The notes under the pieces are model-generated. The model ran no database searches and was not told where the DNA came from. It worked only from the letters and a program-made list of their open reading frames with translations. Below, piece by piece: positions 2,600 through 15,905 of a stretch of 27,928 bases of DNA. Source of the stretch: a virus; the IMG/VR virus record IMGVR_UViG_3300021963_009370, positions 1 to 27,928 of that record; one strand, given 5' to 3'. The first letter of the stretch is position 1. Each line of letters begins with the position of its first letter. A program made the position numbers and the translations under genes.

Positions 2600-3205
2600 A
2601 TGATTACACACGAGCGGGTGATACAATGGATGAATGTTGTTCGGGAGGAAATAAACTCTCCCGAACAATTTCGCATTTTAGAGAATTTTTGGGCGAGTCA
2701 GCTAAATAGTAAAATGTGGTTGATTGAAAAAATCAACGAATATTGTTTATTATTTCCTGGATCGCACATTTACATTTTTGGTGGGTGGTATGGCATTCTT
2801 GCACAGCTACTTATTCAAGCCATTCCTGACGTTCATGTAACTTCTATTGACATTGATGACAGATGTAAAATATTAGGTGAACGATTAAAACTACCTGATG
2901 ATAACATTACCTTTGTCACCACGAACATGCAAGATTTCACACAATACGATGAACACACCGCATTGGTAATTAATACCTCAACTGAACACATTTCACAGGA
3001 AACATTTGATAATTGGTTACATCATATCCCTGAACACACAAATATTGTGTTACAGGGAAATAATTTTTTTGCGTGCTCAGAGCATATACGGTGTACTTCA
3101 TCATTAAGTGAATTTCAACAAATAAATAAGATGACCAAGATAAAATTTGCAGGTGAATTTGATTGTGTGCAATTCAAACGATATATGACTATAGGAAGAA
3201 AATAA
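2600..3205 (+). CDS. SAM methyltransferase-like protein
   Basis: 201 aa. The segment IYIFGGWYGILAQLLIQ (about residues 57-73) looks like a class I methyltransferase motif I, followed by VTSIDIDDRC (motif II acid) and NTSTEHIS (motif IV position). Relatives with this GGWYG...IDID...NTSxEHI pattern occur in T4-like aquatic phages, often next to sugar genes; the substrate is unknown. The start abuts the guaC stop and the TAA overlaps the next ATG. Confidence 0.75.
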   Translation: MITHERVIQWMNVVREEINSPEQFRILENFWASQLNSKMWLIEKINEYCLLFPGSHIYIFGGWYGILAQLLIQAIPDVHVTSIDIDDRCKILGERLKLPDDNITFVTTNMQDFTQYDEHTALVINTSTEHISQETFDNWLHHIPEHTNIVLQGNNFFACSEHIRCTSSLSEFQQINKMTKIKFAGEFDCVQFKRYMTIGRK

Positions 3206-4392
3206 TGACAATAGTTTATGTACCTGAAATACCTTCAATACGGGTAAAAAATGGAAAAATATATGAATACTATAATACTATTATACCACATTTATCAAAG
3301 GAATTTAATCAACACGATGGCAACATTGTATGTGTTTGGGCGTTTCCTACTTTTCCCGATACTGTACATTCTGAAAAAACTATTTGCGATTATATACAAA
3401 AAAATATCAAAAATGAGAACACCTTACTCTTTTTCGATAATACACAGGAAGGACATATACTTGGATCATTATATGGTATATATGAAATTCTTGATAAGAT
3501 CAATTTTGATACCACGAAATGCTATTTTTTTAGTTCATCGGCTGATGCATTTCAACTACATGATGCCTTTTGCGTCGAAAATGATGTAAAAAATAAAATC
3601 AATATACGTGTGCTCAACGTTTGGGAACGACATATTGCTAAACATTTTCCCAGAAATAGCAACTTTGATTATGATGTATCACAATTAAGGAAAAAATTGT
3701 TTTTATCTTTTAATAGAATGTCTCGTCATCACAGAATCGCGTTGTTGGGTTTGTTATATCAGCATAATTTAGTAGATAAAGGATATATATCTTTTTTCAC
3801 TGATTTGTATGGAAAATCATTGAAAAAGGTAGCAGATGGTCTTCTATCTTTTGTGAGCGAGGAGACATACAATACAATATTAAATCAAATACTGGCGAAC
3901 TACCATAAATTCCCATTAAAATTAAATACAGACTCAGTTGTTGATAATGTAAATTATGTAAAATCTGATGATGATATTTTTTATAGAAATAGTTATTTTT
4001 CTGTTGTAACTGAGACTTTCTTTTTCGAATCAAAGCGATGGGGGGGTAAAAAGATGTTTGATGAAGATGGTATTTTCTTTTCTGAAAAGACGTATAAGCC
4101 TATAGCATGCAAACATCCATTCGTGTTACTTAATCGACCACATGCTTTGAAATTTTTGAAAAATCAAGGGTATAAAACTTTTCATCCTTTTATTGATGAA
4201 AGTTATGATTCTATTCTTGATGATGAAGCTCGACTGTTAGCGATTGTTAATGAAATTAAGCGGTTATCTACCTTTTCAGACGAACAATGGTATGACTGGA
4301 TGAAAAATATTCATCCTATTATTGAACATAATCACCACACATTGTTATCAAAAGATAAAATGTCACACGAATTATTCAGATTTGATATATGA
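3205..4392 (+). CDS. putative glycosyltransferase-like protein
   Basis: Start chosen at ATG 3205 (TAATG overlap with the preceding stop), giving 395 aa beginning MTIVYVPEIPS; an in-frame start further upstream would overlap the previous gene. I do not recognise a named Pfam family with certainty. Two blocks are diagnostic within the window: LRKKLFLSFNRMSRHHR followed by GYISFFTD, and FFSEKTYKPIACKHPF with LKNQGYKTF and YDSIL downstream. The same two blocks recur in weaker form in the 5048-6022 protein, so the two are paralogues. The SEKTxKPI/GHPF pattern is typical of unassigned phage and bacterial proteins in polysaccharide clusters. Very AT-rich. The role as a sugar transferase is inferred from context. 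Confidence 0.6.
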   Translation: MTIVYVPEIPSIRVKNGKIYEYYNTIIPHLSKEFNQHDGNIVCVWAFPTFPDTVHSEKTICDYIQKNIKNENTLLFFDNTQEGHILGSLYGIYEILDKINFDTTKCYFFSSSADAFQLHDAFCVENDVKNKINIRVLNVWERHIAKHFPRNSNFDYDVSQLRKKLFLSFNRMSRHHRIALLGLLYQHNLVDKGYISFFTDLYGKSLKKVADGLLSFVSEETYNTILNQILANYHKFPLKLNTDSVVDNVNYVKSDDDIFYRNSYFSVVTETFFFESKRWGGKKMFDEDGIFFSEKTYKPIACKHPFVLLNRPHALKFLKNQGYKTFHPFIDESYDSILDDEARLLAIVNEIKRLSTFSDEQWYDWMKNIHPIIEHNHHTLLSKDKMSHELFRFDI

Positions 4393-10841: not shown

Positions 10842-13526
10842 ATGAAAAAAATTCTGTTACTCTTGTTTGTCCCGTTTTCGTCAGTATTTGCCCAAACGGG
10901 ACAAATTGTTGGTAGAGTGTTAGATGAATCAGGGCAAGGTTTACCCAGTGTAGGAATTCAAGTTGTCGGAACAACCACCGGAGTTATGTCAGGGGTTGAC
11001 GGACGGTATCGTTTACGAGTTACCGCCGGTACAACTACGATACAAGTTCGTCGTATTGGATACACGCCAAAAACAATTACAGGAATTATTGTTCCTAATA
11101 ATGGCATCATTGAACAAGATATTATTATGAGTGTTGCGAAAGTCCAACTTTCTGCAATAAATGTGACTGCGGTTAAGGAAAATGGTAGTATTAGCGGATC
11201 CTTAAACGCACAAAAAAATGCGACCAATGTAACTAATGCTATCACATCAGAACAAATTTCACGCAGCCCTGATAGCGATGCGGCACAAGCCGCACAACGT
11301 ATTAGCGGTGTCGCTGTGCAAGATGGCAAATATTTACAAGTGCGTGGCTTAAATGAACGTTACACAACTGCAAGTTTAAATGGGGTTCGACTTCCTAGTC
11401 CTGAACCTGAACGTAAAGTCGTTCCTTTAGATTTATTTCCATCTAGCTTACTACAGGAAATTAATACCAGTAAAACGTTTACCCCTGATCAACCTGGCGA
11501 TTTTGCAGGTGCCACGGTTAACATAAAAACAAAAGAATTTCCTGCACGAAAACAACTCAACTATAGTATGAGTGTTGGAGCAAACAATCGGGTGCTTTCT
11601 AATACACTACCTTTTGCCCCACGTGCCGGCGGCGAACTTTTTGCTTTATCAGGTTCAGCGCGAAACATGCCGACAGATTTGGCAAATGCAAATTTCCTAG
11701 GAAATGTTACGCAATCACAAATGAATAGTATCATTCGTTCACAACGTAATGTATGGGCACCACAATATCGTGATGGTCGAGGAAATAGTTCCTTTGGTGT
11801 CTCAGCAGGTGGTAATACGATATTAGGAAAAAACATTGGTTATGTCTTAAGTAGTAATTACGGATATTCAGAAGAAGTTCGGAGTAATGAACAACTTGCT
11901 GTTGGTAATCAAGGTGCAAACAATACTGTAGTGCCTTTAACATCACTTCGCGGTCAAACTGCCCGGGTAGGAGTGCAATGGGGCGGGATTGTTAATCTTT
12001 CAACTATGATAGGGCAATCCTCGCGGGTATCATTAAATAGCACATTCACACGAAACGCAGATAATGAAGCGCGTGTTGACGGGGGGTTTGATGAAAATCT
12101 CGCTGATAGTATTAGTCGTACTACATTACGATATGTAGAACGTGGCGTTGTCGCTGTTACAGGACAAGGTGATCATCAATTATCGACTAATAATAAAACA
12201 TCATGGTCACTTACAACATCCAATACCACACGAAAGGAACCTGATCGGTCAGATGTGGTATACGCACGAAATGGCACGAATGGTTATTCATTACTTACAT
12301 CGTTAGACGGCGCCCGGCGTCTATATTTCAATCTACAAGAACACAATGTCGTAGGTCAACTTGATCACACACTTACTGTAGGAAATCAAAATAATATTAA
12401 AGTAGGAACTTATTATCGTACCACAGAACGTAACACTCAAGCTCCTATCTATGCGTTTATTAGTCGTGCGAACGAAAATGTAACTACACAACCTGCCAAT
12501 GTCATTTTTAGTAAAGAGCAAGCATGTGAAACCTGTAATATAATTAACATTCAACCTATAGGTCAAGCAGGATCATACACCGCTAATGATGTAAACATGG
12601 CTGGCTATGTGATGACTGAATGGCAACTGTTAGATTATATGCGGATGATTGTTGGTGGACGTGTTGAAGGAGCGAATATTCAGGTAAATACCTCAACTCA
12701 AGGAGGATTTACGGTCGGTTCTGCTTTGCAAAATGTTGATGTATTACCTGCATTTTTACTCAATACGAAAATGTCTGATAATACTAATTTGCGTTTTGCG
12801 ATATCCCGAACCGTCACGCGCCCTGAATATCGTGAGTTAGCGCCGGTAACATTTCGTGATGTATTAGGTGGCGTAAGTGTAACGGGTAACAGTAAACTTC
12901 GTCGTGGATTAATTAACAACATTGACATTCGCTACGAACATTTTCCTACCCCGAATGAAATATTCAGTATTGGATTATTTGCAAAGCAATTCATTGATCC
13001 TATTGAACGTGTGGAACAAGCTACATCTGGGGCATATCAAGCAAACTTTCAAAATGCTTTAACCGCTGATAACATCGGTATTGAAGTTGAATTAAGAAAA
13101 CAGTTGCTTACGTCTTTATCTGTGTTTAGCAATATTACGGTGATGAGTTCAACCGTACAATTAGATGTCTCACGCGGATTAACAGTTACTGATAGTGAAC
13201 GTGCATTAGTTGGGCAGGCACCCTATGTTATTAATGCAGGGGTAACATATTCATCTCTAAGTGGGCGCACGAATGCCACGCTATTGTATAATACTGTAGG
13301 TGATAGAATCTTTGCTGCGGGGGTAATCCCATTACCAAACATTGTTGAAAAATCTCGTCATATGTTAGATTTAACCTTGAAGGTGCCTATCGGCAATCGT
13401 GCAAATGTAAAACTAGACATTCGAAACATTTTAGATGCACGCTTCAGATTTATGCAAGGTAACCTGGAACGCGAAGGATATAACGTAGGTCGAGCAATAT
13501 CATTAGGGATGTCTGTCGTTAAATAA
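10842..13526 (+). CDS. TonB-dependent outer-membrane receptor with carboxypeptidase-like regulatory domain
   Basis: 894 aa, full-length. Signal peptide MKKILLLLFVPFSSVFA (cleavage about residue 17-18). Carboxypeptidase regulatory-like domain at about 20-105 (GQIVGRVLDESGQGLPSV...GVDGRYRL...RRIGYTPKTITG). Plug domain at about 110-230, with ITSEQISRSPDSDAAQA, ISGVAVQDGKYLQVRGL and FTPDQPGDFAGATVNI. The rest forms a beta-barrel with alternating polar/apolar strands. From memory, the SPEPERKVVPLDLFPS and RRIGYTPK wording is close to Gemmatimonadota receptors. Oddities: the last residues GMSVVK lack the usual C-terminal aromatic of barrel proteins; CETC near residue 561 may be a loop disulfide; no Shine-Dalgarno. 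Codon use is somewhat GC-richer than the glycan cassette but still phage-like, so it is an adapted gene, not a recent host fragment. A TonB receptor on a phage genome is very unusual. Confidence 0.93.
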   Translation: MKKILLLLFVPFSSVFAQTGQIVGRVLDESGQGLPSVGIQVVGTTTGVMSGVDGRYRLRVTAGTTTIQVRRIGYTPKTITGIIVPNNGIIEQDIIMSVAKVQLSAINVTAVKENGSISGSLNAQKNATNVTNAITSEQISRSPDSDAAQAAQRISGVAVQDGKYLQVRGLNERYTTASLNGVRLPSPEPERKVVPLDLFPSSLLQEINTSKTFTPDQPGDFAGATVNIKTKEFPARKQLNYSMSVGANNRVLSNTLPFAPRAGGELFALSGSARNMPTDLANANFLGNVTQSQMNSIIRSQRNVWAPQYRDGRGNSSFGVSAGGNTILGKNIGYVLSSNYGYSEEVRSNEQLAVGNQGANNTVVPLTSLRGQTARVGVQWGGIVNLSTMIGQSSRVSLNSTFTRNADNEARVDGGFDENLADSISRTTLRYVERGVVAVTGQGDHQLSTNNKTSWSLTTSNTTRKEPDRSDVVYARNGTNGYSLLTSLDGARRLYFNLQEHNVVGQLDHTLTVGNQNNIKVGTYYRTTERNTQAPIYAFISRANENVTTQPANVIFSKEQACETCNIINIQPIGQAGSYTANDVNMAGYVMTEWQLLDYMRMIVGGRVEGANIQVNTSTQGGFTVGSALQNVDVLPAFLLNTKMSDNTNLRFAISRTVTRPEYRELAPVTFRDVLGGVSVTGNSKLRRGLINNIDIRYEHFPTPNEIFSIGLFAKQFIDPIERVEQATSGAYQANFQNALTADNIGIEVELRKQLLTSLSVFSNITVMSSTVQLDVSRGLTVTDSERALVGQAPYVINAGVTYSSLSGRTNATLLYNTVGDRIFAAGVIPLPNIVEKSRHMLDLTLKVPIGNRANVKLDIRNILDARFRFMQGNLEREGYNVGRAISLGMSVVK

Positions 13527-13548
13527 ATACAATAGATGGTAGTATAAT
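13519..13548 (+). promoter_or_regulatory. putative promoter of the permuted tmRNA
   Basis: A consensus TATAAT lies at 13543-13548. The best -35 candidate is a weak TTAAAT at 13519-13524 (18-bp spacer). Initiation near 13555 would start the RNA just before the predicted acceptor piece. An AATAAATA-like late box overlaps at about 13521-13528. Confidence 0.5.
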
Positions 13549-13554
13549 GTCTTG

Positions 13555-13597
13555 ATGAAATATGTCTTGGACGCGGGTTCGATTCCCGCCATCTCCA
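13555..13597 (+). ncRNA. tmRNA acceptor piece (T arm and 3' acceptor strand)
   Basis: The upstream piece contains the 3' strand of P2 (13561-13569), the T arm with TTCGATT loop (13578-13584), the acceptor strand (13590-13596) and the discriminator A at 13597. The 5' end is estimated from the TATAAT at 13543. It would carry the alanine after CCA addition. It is shorter than acceptor pieces I remember from bacteria. Confidence 0.85.
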
Positions 13598-13691
13598 TAC
13601 TGGGGGGATGACATGGCTTCGACAGGGTATAAAGTAACCCAGGAACGCTACCCGATAGGCGACTGCCGTAAGCAGAGCACAATCATTAAAG

Positions 13692-13727
13692 GGCACATAT
13701 AACGCGCCTCTCGCATTAGCTGCTTAA
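13692..13727 (+). other. tmRNA proteolysis-tag reading frame (GTYNAPLALAA)
   Basis: Resume codon proposed as GGC at 13692, because the upstream bases supply the U at -5 and A at -4 seen before resume codons. The stop is TAA at 13725-13727. The tag would be GTYNAPLALAA, and the last four residues match the ClpXP-type ALAA degron. The resume codon is less certain than the 3' end; a GCA at 13677 would give a longer tag, but lacks the A at -4. Confidence 0.75.
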
Positions 13728-13742
13728 TTAAGTAGCTTTGCC

Positions 13743-13775
13743 GGGTTCGGGGTTACCCTGGGAACAGAAAACCCC
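13743..13775 (+). other. H-type pseudoknot downstream of the tag
   Basis: GGGT (13743-13746) pairs with ACCC (13755-13758), and GGGGTT (13749-13754) pairs with AACCCC (13770-13775). The order of the four strands is interleaved, which is the pseudoknot topology expected after a tmRNA tag. Confidence 0.7.
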
Positions 13776-13790
13776 ACCCCTTTAATTTCT

Positions 13791-14363
13791 ATGCAAATAC
13801 ATATACCTGACAAGTGCCCACAAATTAATGTGTTATTTTCAGGTGGTGTTGATAGCTCATTACTATTATATCTACTCACCACACAAAACACACGCAATAT
13901 CCCCATACATGTATTTGGGATGTTAAAAAACAAACGTGAACAACATTTTCATGCTGTTTTATCGTGGCTTGAAACTCACCTGCATACACAATACATAAAG
14001 CAGTTAACACCACGGTTTTTCTTTATTCGCGATTTCGTAAAAAATACGTTAGATATCTCACCTGAAAACGCGATAACATATAGCGCGTGTAATAAAGTGA
14101 TTACGGATGTATTTACTCCTACAAAATTTATCCCCGGTGATACGCCCCCGGTTCGTGGGCCTGCTTTAAGTGAACACCACTTTCGCCCATTTATTAACTT
14201 TGACAAAGTATATCTTTGTAACTTATATAAACAATATGGGTTACAGGATCTATTCTTATTGACACATTCTTGTGGTATAGATATTACTAATCATTGTGGT
14301 GAATGTTATTTTTGCATGGAAAGAGACTGGGGAATAAGAGAAAGTAATCTATTTAACTTATAA
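13791..14363 (+). CDS. PP-loop ATPase, QueC-like (7-cyano-7-deazaguanine synthase-like)
   Basis: 190 aa. N-terminal PP-loop INVLFSGGVDSS (about residues 12-23), which binds and adenylates with ATP. The C-terminal zinc-type cluster HSCGIDITNHCGECYFCMERDWG has Cys-x7-Cys-x2-Cys-x2-Cys, the arrangement of QueC. It is shorter and more diverged than typical QueC (about 220-230 aa). No FolE, QueD or QueE is in the window, so a role in DNA or tRNA deazaguanine modification is only a possibility. The ATG follows the tmRNA pseudoknot within 16 bases with no Shine-Dalgarno, so it may be read from the same transcript. The stop overlaps a late promoter. Confidence 0.7.
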   Translation: MQIHIPDKCPQINVLFSGGVDSSLLLYLLTTQNTRNIPIHVFGMLKNKREQHFHAVLSWLETHLHTQYIKQLTPRFFFIRDFVKNTLDISPENAITYSACNKVITDVFTPTKFIPGDTPPVRGPALSEHHFRPFINFDKVYLCNLYKQYGLQDLFLLTHSCGIDITNHCGECYFCMERDWGIRESNLFNL

Positions 14364-14396: not shown

Positions 14397-15905
14397 ATGG
14401 CACATTTTAACATTGTATATCAAAAGGATACTGCTGCACAAGTTATTGCGGCACTTCCATCTGATATACAAATTATTTCACATTTAGAAAAGTTACGAGT
14501 CCTTACAGTTGAAGCACCTGCTGATACAGGATTATTAGAAATTTCTGGGGTAGTCAGTGTGGCTATAGATGAGCAAGTAATTGCAGAAACAGCTACAACA
14601 CCTTGGCACAAGTTACGTATTTGTTCGGCAGAATTACCTATGCGTGATCAATACCTGCCAAAAAATACAGGTGCAAATACAACAGTATATCTTGTTGACT
14701 CAGGTATAAATGTTGTAGGAGATTTAGCAAATGCCACGATTGAAAATCTGTATAGTTTTGACGGAACTTTTTCTGATACCCTAAATCACGGTACAGGAAT
14801 CGCATCATTAATTGTTGGCGAAACACTCGGTGTGTCAAAAGATGCAAAACTAAAGGTAGTTAAAATTCCGATGAACGTCGCTGTAAATGTTAGTGCATTG
14901 CTAAGTGCGTTTGACGCGGTTTTAACAGATCACACACTCACATCTGACGTTAAGATTGTGAATTGTTCATGGGTAGTACCAAAAAATCAAATCTTAGATT
15001 TAAAAATTCAAGAATTACAAAGTGAAGGATTACTTGTTGTTGCGGCAGCAGGTAATAATGTATCAAACGCGGATAACTTTTCGCCTGTGGGATTGGATAC
15101 TGTATTAGGTGTTGCTGCATCAGACGCATTTGATCGGGTTATTAATTGGGGAACGAATACAGGAAGTAACTGGGGTACAGAAGTTGATATTACCGCACCT
15201 GGGATTGATATTGAAGTCTTATCAAGTGATGGCACAATCGTTACGACATCAGGTACTTCATTAGCGGCAGCTATCGTATCAGGTGCCGCAGCACAATTTA
15301 TTGTTGAAAATCCTGCTAAGACAGCACAAGAAATACAAGATCTTATCATTGCTACATCATCACAAGATTTATTATTCCGAAATGAAGCCGTGTATGGCAC
15401 GACTCCTAATATGCTATTACGTGTTCCTCAATATCAGTTTGTGTTTGAAGGTACACCAACAACAGTTAATGTACAAAAAGGTACATCAGTAAATGTTCAA
15501 CTAGTGACACAACCTGTAGTAAATAGTGTGTCAATTGATAATATTATTATTGCAGGGAAACCCTCTCCTGCTTTTTCCTGGGTTGCATTAGACACACAAA
15601 CTAATCAATTAACGTTGACACCGCCGACTGATATTACATCAGCAAAATATGTAATTCGTGTCTCGGCAAAAAATGTAAATAATGAACTCATCATGAATTT
15701 TGGTATTATTGCGTCGGTATTTACTGATTCAGTAACTGAAGTTACAGGAACCGAAACATACTTTTTAACAGAAGAAAATGGTGTTGTTACCGTTCGCCCA
15801 TCTTTTTGTGTGAGTGAAGGAGCATTTTGCTTCGGGTCGTGTACTGATGATGGTAAAGGCGGTGGGTGTGCTTGTGTTGACGGAAATTGTCAATCACAAT
15901 TCTAA
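14397..15905 (+). CDS. subtilisin-like serine protease (peptidase S8) with Ig-like and Cys-rich C-terminal regions
   Basis: 502 aa. Residues 1-70 look like an inhibitor I9-type prodomain (HFNIVYQKDTAAQVIAAL...VVSVAIDEQ). The catalytic triad is intact: Asp in VYLVDSGIN (about 99), His in LNHGTGIASLIVG (about 130) and Ser in TSGTSLAAAIVSG (about 287), with the oxyanion Asn in AAAGNN (about 217). An Ig-like beta domain spans about 340-440. The last 35 residues contain six cysteines and a Gly-rich stretch (FCFGSC...GGGCACVDGNC). There is no signal peptide. The late promoter suggests a virion or lysis-time role (prohead maturation, tail-bound surface degradation). Cys spacing suggests a small disulfide-rich knob. 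Confidence 0.9.
   Translation: MAHFNIVYQKDTAAQVIAALPSDIQIISHLEKLRVLTVEAPADTGLLEISGVVSVAIDEQVIAETATTPWHKLRICSAELPMRDQYLPKNTGANTTVYLVDSGINVVGDLANATIENLYSFDGTFSDTLNHGTGIASLIVGETLGVSKDAKLKVVKIPMNVAVNVSALLSAFDAVLTDHTLTSDVKIVNCSWVVPKNQILDLKIQELQSEGLLVVAAAGNNVSNADNFSPVGLDTVLGVAASDAFDRVINWGTNTGSNWGTEVDITAPGIDIEVLSSDGTIVTTSGTSLAAAIVSGAAAQFIVENPAKTAQEIQDLIIATSSQDLLFRNEAVYGTTPNMLLRVPQYQFVFEGTPTTVNVQKGTSVNVQLVTQPVVNSVSIDNIIIAGKPSPAFSWVALDTQTNQLTLTPPTDITSAKYVIRVSAKNVNNELIMNFGIIASVFTDSVTEVTGTETYFLTEENGVVTVRPSFCVSEGAFCFGSCTDDGKGGGCACVDGNCQSQF

What the first reader, a model, noticed from the sequence alone, without database searches (positions are those of the whole stretch)
13555..13785. Phage-encoded circularly permuted (two-piece) tmRNA
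The tRNA-like 3' half (T arm, CATCTCC acceptor, discriminator A) lies upstream of the 5' half (GGGGATG, D loop), separated by only six bases. Seven acceptor base pairs, a 9-bp P2, a tag ending ALAA-stop and a downstream H-type pseudoknot agree with one RNA. Permuted tmRNA is known in alphaproteobacteria, betaproteobacteria and cyanobacteria. Linear tmRNAs are known in some phages. I do not recall a described T4-like phage with this arrangement. A phage would gain its own ribosome-rescue RNA with a custom tag.
Basis: partly seen in the sequence, partly recalled or inferred. Interest (0 to 1): 0.92.

Follow-up and report, generated by a model that had tools for sequence, protein, structure and literature searches.

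The report
Phage two-piece (permuted) ribosome-rescue RNA
A T4-like phage from a metagenome carries a genuine circularly permuted tmRNA gene, an RNA that rescues stalled ribosomes and tags the unfinished protein; such genes are already known in other phages, so this is a well-supported new example rather than a new kind of system.

Summary
Rfam's permuted-tmRNA model matches 13538-13727 at 119 bits (E 5e-23), the beta-tmRNA model matches too, and ARAGORN calls a permuted tmRNA with tag GTYNAPLALAA. Orthologous genes lie at the same place in related phage contigs, directly downstream of a TonB-dependent-receptor gene. Across them the halves keep pairing through compensatory changes and the tag is conserved, while the spacer between the halves varies from 6 to 34 nt, as expected if it is removed. 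It is most likely a working two-piece tmRNA that uses host processing enzymes and host SmpB; none was found on the fragment. Expression and cleavage were not testable. The novelty claim fails. Two-piece tmRNAs in phages were published in 2022 (PMC9004378), and the described T4-like Stenotrophomonas phage Mendera and cyanophages S-CAM1 and S-SSM7 carry them (found here by Rfam). The six-base spacer is also ordinary: Prochlorococcus and Rhodocyclaceae show 6-9. Mildly new points are the conserved receptor-tmRNA neighbourhood, the orthologue series with different spacer lengths, and a different phage with a 69%-identical receptor that carries a one-piece tmRNA. Verdict: new member of a known kind.

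The parts
13538..13597 (+). acceptor (3') piece of permuted tmRNA: P2 3' strands, T arm, acceptor 3' strand CATCTCC, discriminator A13597; CCA not encoded
   Evidence: RF04321 alignment; compensatory changes in orthologues
13598..13603 (+). intervening sequence TACTGG, 6 nt, expected to be removed
   Evidence: orthologues have 27 and 34 nt here
13604..13691 (+). 5' part of the coding piece: acceptor 5' strand GGGGATG, D-like loop, P2 5' strands, upstream stem region
13692..13727 (+). tag reading frame GTYNAPLALAA-stop (GGC resume codon, TAA stop)
   Evidence: ARAGORN, translation; conserved in orthologues
13740..13775 (+). probable downstream H-type pseudoknot (CCGGGU/ACCC-GG and GGGGUU/AACCCC)
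   Evidence: read from the sequence; conserved in orthologues; beta_tmRNA model match extends to 13784
10842..13526 (+). TonB-dependent receptor gene, conserved upstream neighbour (894 aa)
   Evidence: Pfam Plug and CarboxypepD_reg; conserved with the tmRNA in L245, L246, L249, L253, L254

Best explanation
It is a permuted tmRNA (ssrA) gene in a T4-like phage. One precursor transcript folds so that the acceptor stem closes over a short spacer loop. Host RNase P and 3' tRNA-processing nucleases remove the spacer, the host enzyme adds CCA, and host alanyl-tRNA synthetase charges the acceptor piece by way of G3-U70. The two base-paired pieces, with host SmpB, enter stalled ribosomes, switch translation to the tag frame and release the ribosome with an (A)GTYNAPLALAA tag for host proteases. 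Shown: gene anatomy, conserved structure, conserved tag, conserved position. Inferred: transcription, cleavage, charging, SmpB use and benefit to the phage.
For: Rfam matches far above threshold; ARAGORN; orthologues in four other non-identical contigs next to the same receptor gene; compensatory changes at acceptor pair 5, T-stem pairs 1 and 2, P2 pair 13538-13652 (G-C to A-U between the near-identical window and L246) and P2 pairs 13563/13564, several of them joining sequence across the spacer; tag conserved apart from Y-to-F and A-to-S, while spacer length varies 6, 27, 34 nt; phage context on both sides: PhoH and nuclease-like genes upstream, gp32-like SSB and T4-like baseplate genes downstream.
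Against: No RNA-seq or end mapping. No SmpB on the fragment or on seven related contigs, all of unknown completeness, so host SmpB is assumed. The pseudoknot does not beat shuffled sequence in simple folding. Some related contigs with the receptor lack a permuted tmRNA at this place (L247, L248, L250, L251), so it is not essential to the locus.
Confidence: 0.9

Rival explanations
1. A decaying or decoy tmRNA: the tRNA-like domain is retained but acts to titrate host SmpB or host tmRNA rather than to tag.
For: A phage tmRNA-like domain (DS6A) is reported to inhibit host tmRNA when expressed in E. coli (PMC11915505; PMC4131195).
Against: The tag frame is intact and conserved in orthologues with only conservative changes, which a decoy would not need.
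Confidence: 0.06
2. A passive fragment of host tmRNA captured by imprecise excision or an integration-site duplication.
For: Prophages often use tmRNA genes as integration sites (stated in PMC9004378, and PMC11915505).
Against: Both halves and the tag are complete; the gene is kept with structure-preserving changes across diverged phages of T4-like type; no integrase was recognised among the window genes that were searched.
Confidence: 0.03
3. Chance resemblance, or a tRNA-like element only.
For: None beyond the weakness of single-strand folding z-scores.
Against: E-value 4.8e-23 and covariation across the spacer.
Confidence: 0.01

Closest known systems
Betaproteobacterial permuted tmRNA (Rfam RF01850), e.g. 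Rhodocyclaceae and Accumulibacter
   Same: Same gene order, G3-U70 acceptor, short spacer (7 nt in these genomes), downstream pseudoknot; nearest bacterial sequences at 76% over about 119 nt
   Different: Tag starts with Gly and reads GTYNAPLALAA rather than ANDERFALAA; CCA is not encoded; lies in a phage
Two-piece tmRNA of methylophage Melnitz and related marine myophages (PMC9004378)
   Same: Permuted tmRNA in a T4-type myophage
   Different: Melnitz's is alphaproteobacterial in type and is associated with a glutamine riboswitch; here the beta-type model fits best and Rfam reports no riboswitch
Permuted tmRNA of T4-like phages Mendera (Stenotrophomonas), S-CAM1 and S-SSM7 (Synechococcus)
   Same: Permuted tmRNA in described T4-like phages, RF04321 118.5, 99.1 and 78.5 bits
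   Different: S-CAM1 and S-SSM7 are of cyano type; Mendera has a spacer of about 59 nt and tag VAANDDSYTVRIAA; no TonB receptor is annotated beside them
One-piece tmRNA of IMGVR_UViG_3300031857_000028 (G001)
   Same: Phage contig with a 69%-identical TonB receptor; tag GNYNLALAA begins with Gly and ends LALAA as here
   Different: Linear gene, RF00023 128 bits, not permuted; far from its receptor gene

Membership tests
Permuted tmRNA (RF04321) | acceptor piece upstream of coding piece, covariance score above gathering | tested here: met
   119.2 bits against 47
Permuted tmRNA (RF04321) | tRNA-like domain pairs conserved by covariation | tested here: met
   compensatory changes in acceptor, T stem and P2
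Permuted tmRNA (RF04321) | G3-U70 alanine identity pair | tested here: met
   13606-13594 G-U in all orthologues
Permuted tmRNA (RF04321) | open tag frame ending in a hydrophobic AA-stop | tested here: met
   GTYNAPLALAA-stop
Permuted tmRNA (RF04321) | precursor cleaved to two pieces, spacer lost | not testable with these tools
   indirect only: spacer length varies 6-34 nt in orthologues
Permuted tmRNA (RF04321) | partner protein SmpB | tested here: inconclusive
   absent from the fragment and from seven related contigs of unknown completeness; the host is unknown
Betaproteobacterial subtype (RF01850) | best match of the clan, above gathering | tested here: met
   97.8 bits against 84 and best of its clan; grouping with beta sequences in a short-sequence tree is weakly supported, 0.61-0.79

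The most novel reading that the evidence does not exclude
The phage infects a host phylum that uses one-piece tmRNA (the receptor has a domain make-up common in Bacteroidota- or Gemmatimonadota-type receptors) and supplies a two-piece tmRNA of betaproteobacterial type with a host-tuned, Gly-first tag, making it an RNA of foreign architecture working in a new host; phages with related receptors carry either form.
Probability: 0.25. Interest if true: 0.45.

Novelty: new member of a known kind. Interest (0 to 1): 0.3.

Why it matters
It adds a well-supported phage ssrA gene with an orthologue series in which spacer length changes while structure and tag are kept, useful for studying how short a spacer the processing enzymes tolerate. 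It also shows that permuted tmRNAs are common in viral contigs and can be missed or annotated as hypothetical proteins in cyanophage records.

Tried and rejected
Six-base spacer as an oddity: rejected, since many Prochlorococcus, marine Synechococcus and Rhodocyclaceae genomes have 5-14 nt and 80 of 119 viral matches have 4-15 nt. Phage SmpB: none found. Host assignment: the receptor's best hits are weak (about 23-30% identity) to Bacteroidota, Pseudoalteromonas and Sphingomonas plasmids; searching the Gemmatimonadota phylum was not possible because no genome handle was available; Shine-Dalgarno use was not informative. Class and order surveys of permuted tmRNA around two genomes gave few members and were not used for proportions. 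A sigma-70 promoter scan around the gene was no better than shuffles. No T4-type late promoter TATAAAT lies directly upstream. Sharkady and Williams 2004 was not held.

Full report
Observation. At 13538-13727 the window matches Rfam RF04321 (tmRNA_permuted) with 119.2 bits, E 4.8e-23, and at 13490-13784 RF01850 (beta_tmRNA) with 97.8 bits, E 7.7e-29. ARAGORN independently calls a permuted tmRNA with tag GTYNAPLALAA. The 3' half ends in CATCTCC plus A13597, the spacer is TACTGG, and the 5' half starts GGGGATG at 13604.

Is it in a phage? Neighbouring genes include PhoH and a nuclease-like gene upstream, and a gp32-type single-strand binding protein, a phage lysozyme, baseplate hub, tail tube, DNA end protector and tail-tube cap downstream. 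A baseplate-region protein finds mainly T4-like cyanophages and also Sinorhizobium, Caulobacter and Methylophilales phages, all below 60% identity. The record is a 27,928-base virus contig.

Comparative evidence. The TonB receptor gene directly upstream finds ten viral loci. In the non-identical contigs L246, L249, L253 and L254 a permuted tmRNA follows it directly; L245 is essentially the same phage as the window (99-100% identical proteins). In G007 and G004 the order PhoH, receptor, tmRNA, QueC-like gene, S8 protease, hydrolase, gp32 is kept, at 67-97% and 40-84% protein identity. Between orthologues, acceptor pair 5 changes A-U to G-C, T-stem pair 1 G-C to A-U, T-stem pair 2 C-G to G-C, P2 pair 13538-13652 G-C to A-U in L246, and P2 pairs at 13563 and 13564 switch type. 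The acceptor and P2 changes pair sequence from one side of the spacer with sequence from the other, so the two halves evolve as one structure. Spacers are 6, 6, 34, 34 and 27 nt; tags are GTYNAPLALAA or GTFNSPLALAA. This is what removal of the spacer and use of the tag predict, though it does not prove either.

How it works (inferred from established tmRNA biology). Host nucleases free the two ends, CCA is added, AlaRS recognises G3-U70, and the paired pieces act with host SmpB. No SmpB was found on the fragment or on seven related contigs, whose completeness is unknown. The benefit to the phage may be to keep ribosomes free during infection; this was not tested.

What is known. Buchholz et al. 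2022 (PMC9004378) described a two-piece tmRNA in methylophage Melnitz and counted 53 two-piece structures among 133 unique phage tmRNA structures, 50 of them from marine or aquatic phages. The 2025 tmRNA database lists 79 unique bacteriophage tmRNAs (PMC11915505). Here the described T4-like phages Mendera, S-CAM1 and S-SSM7 match RF04321, though the features overlapping the match in the S-CAM1 and S-SSM7 records are hypothetical proteins and Mendera's record lists no tmRNA there. Spacers of 4-15 nt make up 80 of those 119, and short spacers are normal in Prochlorococcus and Rhodocyclaceae. So neither the phage location, nor the T4-like context, nor the short spacer is new.

What is less usual. 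The closest clan model is the betaproteobacterial one and the nearest bacterial sequences are Rhodocyclaceae (tree support weak), but the tag begins with Gly, unlike the ANDERFALAA and ANDEQFAVAA tags of those bacteria. A 145,753-base phage contig with a 69%-identical receptor, but few other shared genes, carries a one-piece tmRNA with tag GNYNLALAA. The receptor's domain make-up suggests, from general knowledge and not from a test here, a host in Bacteroidota or Gemmatimonadota; if so the phage would bring a tmRNA of foreign architecture. The host could not be determined.

Verdict. A real, probably functional permuted tmRNA; a new member of a known kind; modest interest.

Noticed in passing
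window 10842-13526: Full-length TonB-dependent receptor gene (894 aa) inside a T4-like phage; homologues 69-100% identical in other viral contigs, the six compared all open, dN/dS about 0.03-0.07 between copies, with dS near saturation. A possible receptor-exchange, uptake or superinfection role is untested.
   Followed up: partly
L258 1279-1617 minus strand (G001, IMGVR_UViG_3300031857_000028): One-piece tmRNA with tag GNYNLALAA in a different phage that shares the receptor gene.
   Followed up: partly
L120 (S-SSM7) 2958-3260 and L121 (S-CAM1) 2961-3229: Permuted cyano-type tmRNAs in cyanophage records where the overlapping annotation is 'hypothetical protein'.
   Followed up: partly
L122 (Mendera) 2898-3274: Permuted tmRNA with a spacer of about 59 nt in a T4-like Stenotrophomonas phage, not annotated as tmRNA in this record although annotated in the relative Marzo.
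   Followed up: partly
window 13791-14363 and 14397-15905: QueC-like and subtilase (S8) genes directly downstream, conserved with the tmRNA in relatives; T4-type late-promoter motif TATAAAT at 14359 just before the subtilase gene.
   Followed up: no
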